From a virus, in the IMG/VR virus record IMGVR_UViG_3300022074_000012, positions 30,872-94,871 of that record: a stretch of DNA of 64,000 bases. One strand, 5' to 3'. The position numbers and the translations under genes are program-made. Of the stretch, positions 823-54,021 are shown piece after piece (position 1 is the first letter of the stretch; each line of letters opens with the position of its first letter). The notes below the pieces were generated by a model. It was not told the DNA's origin. It worked only from the letters and a program-made list of their open reading frames with translations, and made no database searches.

Positions 823-1842
823 ATGTCGAGAATTAGAGCAAATACAATAACGAACCAGAATGCAAATGGTGCGCCTAATTTTCCTGATGGTTTAACTGTT
901 ACTGGTATAGTTACTGCAACAGTATCAAGTTCCACACTTGGTTCTCTCTCCGTGACTGGTAATGCAACAGTCGGAGGAAATCTTAGTATTGGTGGCACAT
1001 TAACATATGAAGACGTAACAAATGTAGATTCGATTGGTATAATTACAGCAAGAAGCAGTATTAATGTTAATGCTGCTAGTAGTGGTATAGGTGTAACAAT
1101 AAATTCTGGTGGTATTAATGTTGCAGGTATTGTAACTGCAACAAGTTATAGAGGTGATGGTTCACAATTATCAGGAATAAGTGTTGATCCATCAGCAGCT
1201 GCGAGTTCTTCTGGATTTTTAAAAGTTTTAAACGCATCAACTCCACAAATAAGATTAAATAATGATGCAAGTGATGGTGCCACTACAAGAGCATTTTTTG
1301 GGATTGCATCAGGTAGTAATAATTTCGTAAATGGTTCAACAGCAAATGACACAGTTTTAACTGCAAGAGCGGCTGGTGATTTATTAATTGGATGTGGTTC
1401 TACAGTAAGAATGAGAATAAGTGAAAATGGACATGTAACAAAACCAAATACTCCAATGTTTCAGGCTCGTCATTCTACTAATGGTGCTATAACTATTAAC
1501 CAAGGAGTAATTCCTTTTGGTACTGTTATAAACAATGTAGGAAGTCATTATAATAATAGTAACTACCGATTTACTGCACCTGTGGCTGGCATTTATTTAT
1601 TTTATGTTGGTTGGTTTGTAATAAGTCATAGTACTCATAGAGTATCCTTACGAGTTAACGGTGGAGATTTTTCAACCCCATATATTAATGGTTTTAACAC
1701 TGGTCAAATTAGTGGTGTAGTGAATCCAGCGGGTTCTCATTTTTTATCTTTATCAGCAAATGATTATGTAGATTGTTATACAGATGGTGCGTTTACACCC
1801 TACGGAACTCATTTAGGATGGGGTGGTTGTTTATTACATTAA
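823..1842 (+). CDS. Tail-fibre-like protein with C1q-type C-terminal domain
   Basis: 339 aa. The N-terminus (MSRIRANTITNQNANGAPNF) is nearly the same as that of the 38766 protein, so it is probably a shared attachment module. It is followed by the repeated modules VTGIVTAT, GGTLTYEDVTNVDSIGIIT and SYRGDGSQLSGI that recur in other fibre genes. The last ~120 residues (TAPVAGIYLFYVGW...) look like a C1q/TNF jelly-roll, a fold used in trimeric phage fibre tips. Probable role is host surface contact; this is inferred from architecture. Confidence 0.75.
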   Translation: MSRIRANTITNQNANGAPNFPDGLTVTGIVTATVSSSTLGSLSVTGNATVGGNLSIGGTLTYEDVTNVDSIGIITARSSINVNAASSGIGVTINSGGINVAGIVTATSYRGDGSQLSGISVDPSAAASSSGFLKVLNASTPQIRLNNDASDGATTRAFFGIASGSNNFVNGSTANDTVLTARAAGDLLIGCGSTVRMRISENGHVTKPNTPMFQARHSTNGAITINQGVIPFGTVINNVGSHYNNSNYRFTAPVAGIYLFYVGWFVISHSTHRVSLRVNGGDFSTPYINGFNTGQISGVVNPAGSHFLSLSANDYVDCYTDGAFTPYGTHLGWGGCLLH

Positions 1843-10270: not shown

Positions 10271-11138
10271 TTTAAAAAATACAACATTTATAATTCCTCT
10301 AAGAATTGATACAGGAGATCGTCTTCGTAATGTAATCCTATCAACAGCATATCTTTTATATAATTTTGATACTACGGTTATGATAAAAGAGGTTGATTCA
10401 GAACGACGTTTTGAAACATTTGCTTTACCAATAATTGAAAGGTTGGTAGATACAAATAACCTTGTTCATATCTTTGAAGAAGAGACAAGAACTGATGATG
10501 CATTTCATCGCACAAAAGTTCTGAATGATATGGTCATGGAATCTACAACTGATATTGTAGTTAATTATGATACTGATTTAATTCTGCCAGTTAGTAGTTA
10601 CACTGACGCAGTTAAAATGTTGAATGGTGAATATGATGTTGTTTATCCATTTCGTTATGGTAATCATGGTGAGAGAAAAGTAAATCTTGGATTCACTATT
10701 GAAACACAGGAAGATATGGATGACTTTGAAAACAGTGATTTTGTATCTAACTTTTTAAACAATGATTTTGATCATGAATGTTTTGATGATCGTTACTTTT
10801 ATTATCAAAGTGATAGGGGTCAGGGTTGGGCAGAGTATGGTATGGTTCAATTCTTTAATCGTCAAGTTTATATTGATGGTTACTTAGAGAATGAAGGATT
10901 TATTGCATACGCACCAGAAGATGTTGAAAGACATCATCGTTGGAAAACACTTGGATATAATATTGGAAGAGTTGACAATCATGCATATCATTTAGAACAT
11001 CAAAGAACACAGAATTCATGGTATCATAATCCCCATATGGAAAGAAATAATAAATTGTGGGAAGATTTAAAAGTACTGAGTAAAGAAGATTTAATATCTT
11101 ATTATAAAAAACAAGAGTATTATACTAATAGATTATGA
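10260..11138 (+). CDS. GT-A-type glycosyltransferase
   Basis: 292 aa from the ATG at 10260 (an in-frame TTG lies one codon upstream). FIIPLRIDTGDRLRNV opening, then NYDTDLIL with a DxD-like metal site near residue 100, and a C-terminal WAEYGMVQFFNR/ERHHRWKTLGY region like the C-terminal part of galactosyltransferase-type GT-A proteins. Donor and acceptor unknown. Overlaps neighbours on both sides. Confidence 0.7.
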   Translation: MKTDLKNTTFIIPLRIDTGDRLRNVILSTAYLLYNFDTTVMIKEVDSERRFETFALPIIERLVDTNNLVHIFEEETRTDDAFHRTKVLNDMVMESTTDIVVNYDTDLILPVSSYTDAVKMLNGEYDVVYPFRYGNHGERKVNLGFTIETQEDMDDFENSDFVSNFLNNDFDHECFDDRYFYYQSDRGQGWAEYGMVQFFNRQVYIDGYLENEGFIAYAPEDVERHHRWKTLGYNIGRVDNHAYHLEHQRTQNSWYHNPHMERNNKLWEDLKVLSKEDLISYYKKQEYYTNRL

Positions 11139-30378: not shown

Positions 30379-30555
30379 GTGAGGGTTTCCTCACCATTAG
30401 AAAGGACTCGAAATTATCGTAACCCTGACTACACAACTGCTCCCAACCAAGACCTCTGTAGGCAGTATAATACCTCGTCTTTCATATCCAGTAGTGAGGG
30501 ATTACTGGAAATAAATATCGCATCTTCCCTGATGCCCTATTTAAACGTCTTACTA
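30379..30555 (+). promoter_or_regulatory. Structured psbA 5' leader
   Basis: About 177 nt without a convincing gene. Hairpin 1 (30379-30394) has arms GTGAGG/CCTCAC with loop GTTT at the very 5' end. Hairpin 2 (30487-30509) has arms TCCAGTA/TACTGGA and a 9-nt loop holding GTGAGG (30494-30499). CCTCAC at 30389-30394 can therefore pair with either GTGAGG copy. PhotoRC RNA motifs are described upstream of psbA in cyanobacteria and cyanophages; membership here is inferred, not tested. The frame is open through to psbA, but the extra 59 residues are not D1-like. Confidence 0.6.
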
Positions 30556-51864: not shown

Positions 51865-52418
51865 GTAATATAAAATTAGTACATTCGGGAGGCAACAGTG
51901 TCTCTCTCACAACACCAGACAGTAATCCAGCGGCAAATCGCACATTAAAGGTGCCTGGTAATGCTGATGGCACAATCTTAACAGACACATATAAACCAGT
52001 ATTTTTTGCAAGAAATAATAATAATCAATCCATAGCAAATAACACATCAACTAAAATTCAATTTGATGCGGAGGTATTTGACTCACACGGATATTATGAT
52101 CATTCAACTAATTACAGGTTTACACCTCTATTAGCTGGATACTATTATATTACTGCAAGCATATACTATGTGAATGTAAATAATGTATATGCTATTGATA
52201 TTAAAAAAAATGGATCAAGATACGTTAATTTAGATTTTAAAGTTGATTTTGCTGGTACTCGTTCTGCATTTATATCCTCTTTAGTATCATTTAATGGGTC
52301 AAGTGATTATGTGGAAATTTTTGGATATCATACAACAGGTTCAAGTATAACTATTGGAAATGGAACACAATATTCCATCACTGAATTTTCGGGTCATTAT
52401 GTGAGGGCACTAGTATGA
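51861..52418 (+). CDS. Tail-fibre-like protein with C1q-type tip
   Basis: 185 aa. SNIKLVHSGGNSVSLTTPDSNPAANRTLKVPGNADGTILT linker common in phage fibres, then a C1q-like domain (YRFTPLLAGYYYITASIYYVNV ... SSDYVEIFGYHTTG). Overlaps the next gene by 4 nt. Confidence 0.75.
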   Translation: MSNIKLVHSGGNSVSLTTPDSNPAANRTLKVPGNADGTILTDTYKPVFFARNNNNQSIANNTSTKIQFDAEVFDSHGYYDHSTNYRFTPLLAGYYYITASIYYVNVNNVYAIDIKKNGSRYVNLDFKVDFAGTRSAFISSLVSFNGSSDYVEIFGYHTTGSSITIGNGTQYSITEFSGHYVRALV

Positions 52419-53608
52419 GCACATTAAAAGTAGACGCAATCAGACACAATAGTGCAACGAGTGATGCAATCACAACAGCAGCAGATGGAACTTGCACTGC
52501 AAAATTAACTTCTGTAGGTGGAGGACAACTATCTCATCGCAATCTCTTAATTAACGGAGATTACAGAATATCCCAACGAGCCACCTCATCTACATCTAAT
52601 GGATATCAAACGATGGATAGGTGGTATGTATATGCTGCTAATCATAGTGTTACAGTCACCACTGCTCAAGTGGATATAACAAGTGGTAATGCTTATGATG
52701 ATGGATTTAGAAAAGCTGCAAAAATATCTTTAAGTGGTGCAGGAACACTTGCAAATAATACAGAGATACTAATTTATCAAAAAATTGAAGCAACAAATTT
52801 AGCAAATAGTGGTTGGAATTATAAATCAGCATCAAGTAATATTACTCTTTCATTTTGGGTAAAATCAAGTACAGCACAAACATTTGCAGCTCATATAAGA
52901 ACTGAAGATGGCACAGCTTACCTATATTCTTTTACATATACAGTCGCACAAGCTAATGTTTGGCAAAAAATAACGAAAACTATTCCTGGTAATTCTAATA
53001 TAACAATTAGTGATAATAATGGTTCTGGACTCAGAGTTTATGTGGGTGTGCCAGCGATAGGTTCTGATTATACATCAGGGACTGCCGATACTTGGGTAGT
53101 CAGTTCTTCATCAAATAAATTTCCCACAGTTCCAAACACTTGGTTGACTGCAGGATCTTCGACCTTTGAATTAACGGGAGTTCAGTTAGAAGTTGGAGAC
53201 ACAGCAACCTCGTTCGAGCACCGTAGCTTTGGTGAGGAACTCTCGTTGTGTTATCGCTACTATTACAAACTAGGTAAGTTGGATTATATTAGTCAACATA
53301 TGTCTGCTGGAGAACAATATTGTATAGGTATGTCTGATAATGATAATGTTAACATATATGGAATGATAAATTTTCCAGTATTCATGAGAACTCCACCAAC
53401 AGGGATAGATGCAACAAGTGCTGGTAATTATCGAGTTAGACGAGACACAACACAAACTTGCACTGGTGTTCCAACTTTTATTGATGCAGCACATCATTAT
53501 TGTAGAGTCAATTTTCCTAAATCAAGTCATGGTTGGGGAACTGGACAAATGTTATGGTGTCAATCTGGTGGTTCAGGTAGTTACTTAGGATTTTCCGCAG
53601 AACTATAG
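52415..53608 (+). CDS. Tail-fibre-like protein, paralogue of the 1-792 gene
   Basis: 397 aa. STLKVDAIRHNSATSDAIT, then LLINGDYRISQR...TMDRWYV, LSFWVKSSTAQTFAAHI, ELTGVQLEVGDTATSFEHRSFGEELSLCYRYYYK and end YLGFSAEL. This is a recognised cyanophage fibre/baseplate-tip plan with a jelly-roll carbohydrate-binding-like domain. Last gene of the array. Confidence 0.75.
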   Translation: MSTLKVDAIRHNSATSDAITTAADGTCTAKLTSVGGGQLSHRNLLINGDYRISQRATSSTSNGYQTMDRWYVYAANHSVTVTTAQVDITSGNAYDDGFRKAAKISLSGAGTLANNTEILIYQKIEATNLANSGWNYKSASSNITLSFWVKSSTAQTFAAHIRTEDGTAYLYSFTYTVAQANVWQKITKTIPGNSNITISDNNGSGLRVYVGVPAIGSDYTSGTADTWVVSSSSNKFPTVPNTWLTAGSSTFELTGVQLEVGDTATSFEHRSFGEELSLCYRYYYKLGKLDYISQHMSAGEQYCIGMSDNDNVNIYGMINFPVFMRTPPTGIDATSAGNYRVRRDTTQTCTGVPTFIDAAHHYCRVNFPKSSHGWGTGQMLWCQSGGSGSYLGFSAEL

Positions 53609-53609
53609 C

Positions 53610-53638
53610 TTGACAAGTATCAAAAAATACTTTATAAT
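53610..53638 (+). promoter_or_regulatory. Sigma-70-type promoter
   Basis: TTGACA (53610-53615), a 17-nt spacer and TATAAT (53633-53638): perfect consensus. Start expected near 53645. Confidence 0.85.
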
Positions 53639-53644
53639 AGAAAA

Positions 53645-53742
53645 GTCTTTAGCATCCTTGTAGATTTGGGACTAGAGATACTTCCCTGTGGTGGGGGAAG
53701 TGTGTTGGTGGTAACACAAAGGGAGGGTTTCCTCCCTTTTTT
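53645..53742 (+). ncRNA. Candidate small RNA or attenuated leader
   Basis: About 98 nt bounded by a consensus promoter and a strong terminator, with no ORF. After ~35 unpaired nt come hairpin A (53680-53701, ACTTCCC/GGGAAGT), hairpin B (53702-53717, GTGTT/AACAC) and the terminator hairpin, back to back. The glutaredoxin gene starts 36 nt after it, so it is either a free small RNA or a leader with an attenuator for that operon. Confidence 0.6.
53718..53742 (+). terminator. Rho-independent terminator
   Basis: Arms AAAGGGAGG/CCTCCCTTT with loop GTTT and a following T-tract. Confidence 0.85.
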
Positions 53743-53778
53743 ATTTTTATAAATCATTATTTAAGGCTAACAACAAAC

Positions 53779-54021
53779 ATGAATTTCACTGTGTTTTCTA
53801 AGGATGGATGTTCATATTGCGAGAAGGTAAAAAAGGTATTAGAGTTGACAAGTAGTAAGTTTGTGGTGTATACTTTAGGTGAACACTTTGATGAAAAAGC
53901 ATTTATTGAAGAATTTGGATATGATACTACATTCCCACAGGTTGTGTGTGATGGTAAAAAACTAGGAGGTACAGTTGAAACAGTTAAGTTCCTCAGAGAA
54001 CAAAAAATCATCTCCGTCTGA
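53779..54021 (+). CDS. Glutaredoxin
   Basis: 80 aa. Thioredoxin fold with the active site C11-S-Y-C14 (KDGCSYCEKVKKVL), the cis-proline segment TTFPQVV, and the GG of KLGGTVE. Probably supplies electrons to phage or host ribonucleotide reductase, as T4 NrdC does (family knowledge). Confidence 0.92.
   Translation: MNFTVFSKDGCSYCEKVKKVLELTSSKFVVYTLGEHFDEKAFIEEFGYDTTFPQVVCDGKKLGGTVETVKFLREQKIISV

What the first reader, a model, noticed from the sequence alone, without database searches (positions are those of the whole stretch)
53610..53742. Candidate phage small RNA: consensus promoter, three stacked hairpins, terminator
Seen: perfect TTGACA-17-TATAAT, about 98 transcribed nt, no ORF, two hairpins immediately followed by a strong intrinsic terminator. 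All lies between the last fibre gene and glutaredoxin. The unit is self-contained, as expected for a regulatory RNA; its terminator loop GTTT and GGG/CCC stem echo hairpin 1 of the psbA leader. It could instead be an attenuator leader.
Basis: seen in the sequence. Interest (0 to 1): 0.75.

Follow-up and report, generated by a model that had tools for sequence, protein, structure and literature searches.

The report
Conserved small-RNA gene in cyanophages
Between a tail-fibre gene and the glutaredoxin gene, this cyanobacterial virus carries a self-contained gene for a roughly 95-base folded RNA that makes no protein; it is kept in well over a hundred related virus sequences, is absent from the RNA family catalogue, and probably acts as an early regulator during infection, although its target is unknown.

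Summary
At 53610-53742 there is a perfect TTGACA-17-TATAAT promoter. A transcript of about 98 nt would start at 53645, fold end to end (z = -4.5) and end in a strong intrinsic terminator. The unit recurs in IMG/VR: 208 covariance-model or direct hits give 134 distinct units. The stems show compensatory changes. The promoter is 12/12 in 99 of 129 units, with the spacer fixed at 17 and 6 nt to the RNA start in 125 of 129. Invariant unpaired motifs are a GUGGUG loop and an RUURGUG linker. No Rfam 15 family matches, and the one isolate that carries it (S-SRM01) has nothing annotated there. Most copies sit upstream of glutaredoxin (nrdC), but nrdC has its own T4-late-type promoter (TATAAAT). Some copies lie elsewhere, one followed by a terminator and a new sigma-70 promoter. 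Tests for a mutually exclusive antiterminator were negative. I read it as a new family of early, probably trans-acting cyanophage small RNA. Transcription, targets and function are not shown. The "35 unpaired 5' nt" and the psbA-leader echo are wrong.

The parts
53610..53638 (+). sigma-70 promoter TTGACA-17-TATAAT (early-type)
   Evidence: 12/12 consensus; same spacing and same distance to the RNA in 125 of 129 distinct relatives, 12/12 in 99
53645..53742 (+). small RNA, about 98 nt (predicted +1 at 53645)
   Evidence: MFE -42.4, z -4.5; covariance-model match 53645-53712, 91.5 bits
53645..53679 (+). hairpin P1: outer stem 53645-53651/53673-53679, apical stem 53655-53658/53668-53671, 9-nt apical loop 53659-53667
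   Evidence: compensatory changes in both stems
53680..53701 (+). hairpin P2 with invariant loop GUGGUG (53688-53693)
   Evidence: four pairs with changes on both sides, 98.7% of cells paired; GUGGU invariant in 35 diverse sequences
53704..53710 (+). conserved linker GUUGGUG (RUURGUG in nearly the whole family)
   Evidence: alignment of 35 diverse members
53702..53717 (+). hairpin P3, window-clade only
   Evidence: 18-24 of 25 sequences pair at each position; absent in the divergent clades
53718..53746 (+). intrinsic terminator, 9-bp stem plus T tract
   Evidence: median stem energy -13.2 kcal/mol over 72 units
53748..53754 (+). T4-late-type promoter motif TATAAAT, serving nrdC
   Evidence: found within 140 nt downstream in 125 of 132 units; TATAAAT is the T4 late promoter sequence used for cyanophages in PMC3037559
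53779..54021 (+). glutaredoxin gene nrdC (neighbour, not part of the RNA)
   Evidence: PF00462, E 2e-10; PHROG 22
52415..53608 (+). tail-fibre gene (upstream neighbour, varies between relatives)
   Evidence: PHROG 4492 tail fibre, E 3e-48

Best explanation
This is a free-standing gene for a ~95-nt non-coding RNA, a new family of T4-like cyanophages. Host RNA polymerase with its sigma-70-type factor would make it early from the consensus promoter. P1 shields the 5' end, P2 displays the invariant GUGGUG loop, a conserved RUURGUG linker stays largely single-stranded in most clades, and the intrinsic terminator ends and protects the 3' side. I infer that it acts in trans by base pairing of the GUGGUG loop and/or the linker with host or phage RNAs containing CACCAC or CAC(C/U)AAY. 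nrdC is then expressed separately from the late promoter behind the terminator. Shown by sequence: promoter, terminator, fold, conservation, covariation, separation from nrdC in several genomes. Inferred: transcription and its early timing, action in trans, pairing mechanism, target.
For: Unit recovered upstream of 41 of 78 nrdC loci and in 134 distinct units overall. True hits score 35.9 bits or more, apart from two copies cut off at contig ends (27 and 50 bits); the rest of the list is about 20 bits or less. Compensatory changes: 12 of 25 pairs, 46 cells against 14.6 in shuffles, and far above slid controls; confirmed on a broader set. Promoter geometry is fixed while the spacer sequence drifts: mean identity 81% core, 58% spacer, 78% nrdC. 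Copies away from nrdC: L182 (promoter, RNA, terminator before a glycosyltransferase), L121 group, L245/L263 (terminator followed by a fresh TTGACA-17-TATAAT before the next gene), L140/L152 (212-aa ORF between RNA and nrdC), and a distant subtype upstream of a peptidase gene (L370, L380, L392, L397). One contig (G004) holds two copies.
Against: No transcript data. No convincing target: the best duplexes in the window are no better than shuffled segments, and the one strong S-SRM01 match is a leader hairpin also found in contigs without a clear copy of the RNA. Most copies stay just upstream of nrdC, as a cis element would. Host genomes could not be searched with the model.
Confidence: 0.55

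Rival explanations
1. Cis-acting leader of nrdC: a riboswitch-like or attenuator element in which the terminator is conditionally read through, so that nrdC can also be made from the early promoter.
For: Promoter, structured RNA, terminator, gene is the classical order. Relatives without the RNA have a sigma-70 -10 box directly beside TATAAAT upstream of nrdC, so early expression of nrdC is plausible there. In 21 of 72 units the RNA cut just before the terminator's 3' arm folds with more than half of the 5' arm paired.
Against: Complementarity between the terminator's 5' arm and the P1 apical strand or the P2 5' strand is no better within a sequence than between sequences (-7.10 against -7.02, p 0.69; -8.67 against -8.16, p 0.13); P2-3' with the terminator 3' arm is slightly better (p 0.02, sequences not independent). 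The downstream gene has its own late promoter in 125 of 132 units, and copies precede unrelated genes, once with a new sigma-70 promoter after the terminator.
Confidence: 0.2
2. An RNA that binds a protein rather than another RNA: for instance a decoy for a host or phage regulator, or a put-like RNA that modifies RNA polymerase as it leaves the promoter.
For: Two adjacent hairpins start exactly at +1, and the loops are more conserved than a single pairing target would need. The architecture resembles HK022 put RNA (own knowledge; no paper on it was held).
Against: One copy per genome in nearly every genome searched, whereas an antitermination element would be expected at several operons. It is followed at once by its own terminator, and in L245/L263 by a new promoter.
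Confidence: 0.17
3. No RNA function: a promoter-terminator module kept as a recombination joint between the exchangeable tail-fibre cassette and the conserved nrdC-thyX-phoH block.
For: Upstream fibre genes vary while nrdC stays. L096 has an intact copy at one end and a copy cut in the P2 loop at the other end of an 11-kb fibre cassette, joined to a glycine-rich coding stretch.
Against: Recombination needs sequence identity, not paired compensatory changes; the stems covary while their sequence changes.
Confidence: 0.05

Closest known systems
CfrI antisense RNA of cyanophage S-PM2 (Millard et al. 2010, described in PMC5931967, PMC9602691 and PMC12197685)
   Same: non-coding RNA of a T4-like cyanophage
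   Different: CfrI is ~225 nt and antisense to the 3' end of psbA; the RNA here is ~95 nt, intergenic between a fibre gene and nrdC, and not antisense to a gene
PhotoRC-II, wcaG, manA, glnA RNAs of cyanophages (Rfam)
   Same: structured RNAs of cyanophages found by comparative genomics
   Different: those are described as cis-regulatory elements in 5' leaders; no sequence or structure match of this RNA to any Rfam 15 model at gathering score
abiF RNA (RF03085) reported in cyanophage S-CREM1 (PMC9964418)
   Same: described as an sRNA gene in a cyanomyovirus
   Different: no Rfam match of abiF here
Phage-encoded trans-acting sRNAs such as sar (P22, 68/69 nt), listed in review PMC12197685
   Same: general form: short phage-encoded RNA
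   Different: no sequence relation known; target known for sar, unknown here
HK022 put RNA (own knowledge)
   Same: two adjacent hairpins directly behind an early promoter
   Different: put acts in cis and is not followed at once by its own terminator and a new promoter; not tested functionally

Membership tests
Phage-encoded independent small RNA gene | own promoter at fixed distance | tested here: met
   125 of 129 units with 17-nt spacer and 6 nt to the RNA start
Phage-encoded independent small RNA gene | own intrinsic terminator | tested here: met
   (131 of 134 with T run)
Phage-encoded independent small RNA gene | non-coding, conserved secondary structure | tested here: met
   covariation; no shared ORF
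Phage-encoded independent small RNA gene | discrete transcript detected | not testable with these tools
   no expression data available
Trans-acting base-pairing sRNA | conserved pairing with a target mRNA | tested here: inconclusive
   window screen no better than shuffles; S-SRM01 match probably coincidental; hosts not searched
Attenuator or riboswitch leader | mutually exclusive antiterminator | tested here: not met
   own complementarity equals swapped complementarity for the two 5'-arm helices tested; only P2-3' with the terminator 3' arm slightly better, p 0.02
Attenuator or riboswitch leader | always in the 5' leader of the same gene, which depends on it | tested here: not met
   other neighbours in L182, L121, L245/L263, L140/L152, L370 group; nrdC has TATAAAT behind the terminator
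PhotoRC-II (RF01717) | match to the covariance model | tested here: not met
   only hit in the window is 30426-30522
CfrI | antisense to psbA | tested here: not met
   locus lies between the fibre gene and nrdC, about 23 kb from the PhotoRC-II/psbA leader
HK022 put-like antitermination RNA | makes polymerase read through terminators | not testable with these tools
   needs a reporter assay

The most novel reading that the evidence does not exclude
A widespread cyanophage RNA that acts directly on the host's transcription or translation machinery, or on a set of host mRNAs, in the first minutes of infection through its invariant GUGGUG loop, and so represents a takeover mechanism by RNA not yet known in lytic cyanophages.
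Probability: 0.15. Interest if true: 0.85.

Novelty: new member of a known kind. Interest (0 to 1): 0.62.

Why it matters
Very few non-coding RNAs of lytic cyanophages are known, and the cyanophage genome papers read here report mainly those that Rfam models find. This family is absent from Rfam 15, is common in marine and freshwater viral contigs, carries an ideal early promoter, and is present in a cultured phage with a cultured host (S-SRM01 on Synechococcus KCZYC6). A regulatory RNA made early in infection of abundant phytoplankton can therefore be tested directly.

Tried and rejected
Rfam at relaxed threshold: only enterobacterial or eukaryotic families far below their cut-offs. Other isolates: of 18 phage records plus DSL-LC02 searched with the models, only S-SRM01 has it. 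ACG-2014f and P-TIM40 blastn hits are terminator likeness only. Antiterminator: not supported by swap tests. Target screen: nothing significant in the window; in S-SRM01 the leader hairpin TTCACACCACTGAACC-ATG has 14-nt complementarity to P2, but the same leader occurs in 20 contigs with no clear copy of the RNA, CACCAC hairpins are not enriched over permuted motifs, and the window lacks that leader. A small ORF GTGGTGGGGGAAGTG... is broken by stops and frame changes in relatives. The Doron et al. 2016 Syn9 transcriptome paper is not held in the library.

Full report
What is there. Window 53610-53742 lies between a tail-fibre gene (52415-53608; PHROG 4492) and a glutaredoxin gene nrdC (53779-54021; PF00462) of a T4-like cyanophage contig (a virus record of 94,871 bases). 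It holds a 12/12 sigma-70 promoter, TTGACA-17-TATAAT, and a strong intrinsic terminator at 53718-53739. The predicted transcript 53645-53746 folds into three abutting hairpins and the terminator at -42.4 kcal/mol, z = -4.5, no shuffle as low.

Conservation. A search for relatives of the neighbouring nrdC gave 78 IMG/VR loci. Of 78 loci with nrdC examined, including two phage records, 41 carry the whole unit upstream of the gene. All accepted hits score 35.9 bits or more, apart from two copies cut off at contig ends (27 and 50 bits); the rest of the list is at about 20 bits or less. After removing identical copies there are 134 units. Of the 129 with enough upstream sequence, 99 have a 12/12 promoter, 21 have 11/12, and 125 have exactly a 17-nt spacer and 6 nt from the -10 box to the RNA. 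The distance from RNA start to the end of the terminator stem is 91-103 nt. Across 120 pairs of 16 diverse members, mean identity is 81% in the RNA core, 78% in nrdC and 58% in the promoter spacer.

Structure by covariation. On 25 distinct sequences the P1, P2 and terminator helices keep 94% of cells paired, with 46 double-sided changes against 14.6 in shuffles and at most 18 with slid partners. A wider set of 35 sequences shows the same for P1 and P2. P1, P2 and terminator are therefore real RNA helices. P3 is clade-specific. Nearly unchanged unpaired features are the P2 loop GUGGUG, the linker GUUGGUG (RUURGUG in nearly the whole family), and a 9-nt P1 apical loop. Five further members also fold better than shuffles (z -2.7 to -3.8). 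Frames and lengths vary, so it is not coding.

Independence from nrdC. Behind the terminator nearly every copy has TATAAAT, the T4-late promoter sequence (125 of 132; sequence as used in PMC3037559), just upstream of nrdC. Some relatives of nrdC without the RNA have a -10 box directly beside TATAAAT. Some copies are not beside nrdC. In L182 the unit stands between a sulfotransferase and a glycosyltransferase gene. The L121 group is in a similar neighbourhood but has lost the promoter. In L245/L263 the terminator is followed by a second perfect sigma-70 promoter and an unrelated gene. In L140/L152 a 212-aa ORF lies between RNA and nrdC. A distant subtype (L370, L380, L392, L397) lies upstream of a gene that matches cyanophage peptidase genes. 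One contig (G004) holds two copies. This pattern fits a movable RNA gene better than a gene-specific leader.

Mechanism. Shown: early-type promoter, structure, terminator, selection on the RNA. Inferred: that it is transcribed early by host polymerase (sigma-70 elements mark T4-like early phage genes, PMC5931967), that it works in trans, and that the invariant loop and linker are its contact sites. I tested the attenuator alternative by asking whether any upstream strand has evolved to pair with its own terminator arm better than with those of other members. For the two 5'-arm helices it does not, and for P2-3' with the terminator's 3' arm the difference is small (p 0.02, sequences not independent). 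A screen for pairing with gene starts gave nothing in the window. In S-SRM01 it gave an interesting but probably coincidental match to a leader hairpin (TTCACACCACTGAACC-ATG) that 20 contigs share without a clear copy of the RNA. So the target is open.

Known or new. No Rfam 15 family matches. In the annotated phage collection only S-SRM01 was found to have it, in an unannotated gap at 10977-11047. Papers on cyanophage RNAs that could be read name CfrI, PhotoRC-II, wcaG, manA, glnA and abiF (PMC9602691, PMC9964418, PMC12197685); none is this RNA. It is a new RNA family within the known kind 'phage-encoded small RNA'. No host homologue was found, but the host search was limited to one pattern scan.

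Caveats. No expression evidence exists here. Many sequences are short metagenome contigs and are related to each other, so counts are not independent events. The transcript ends are predicted.

Noticed in passing
window 53845-53874: Second sigma-70-like promoter (TTGACA-18-TATACT, 11/12) inside nrdC; the same spot in L080 and L083 has TTGACA with TATAAT, so an early promoter inside the glutaredoxin gene seems conserved, probably for the thyX-phoH block.
   Followed up: partly
L096 12580-12649 (minus) and 1466-1532 (minus): A copy of the unit cut in the P2 loop and joined to a glycine-rich fibre-like coding stretch, with an intact copy about 11 kb downstream at the other end of a fibre-gene cassette: looks like a recombination scar of fibre exchange.
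   Followed up: partly
S-SRM01 (MW015081) 89338 and 90322; L432-L451: A leader hairpin CAGTTCACACCACTGAACC directly before ATG recurs upstream of several unrelated genes in S-SRM01 and 20 other viral contigs, just behind -10-like boxes; looks like an unnamed shared 5' leader element.
   Followed up: partly
window 30426-30522: PhotoRC-II RNA (RF01717, 61.8 bits) at the psbA leader.
   Followed up: no
window 2765 and 22318: Two further 12/12 sigma-70 promoters with 17-nt spacers on the + strand.
   Followed up: no
L020, L024, L029, L040, L056 upstream of nrdC: Relatives without the RNA have a TATAAT-like box a few bases from the nrdC start, in several beside TATAAAT, as if the RNA and terminator had been deleted from, or inserted into, a joint early/late promoter.
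   Followed up: partly
L140 11538-12176; L152 1285-1923 (reverse-complement coordinates): A 212-aa protein with no Pfam match (L140 copy scanned) inserted between the RNA and nrdC; could be a mobile (homing-type) gene.
   Followed up: no
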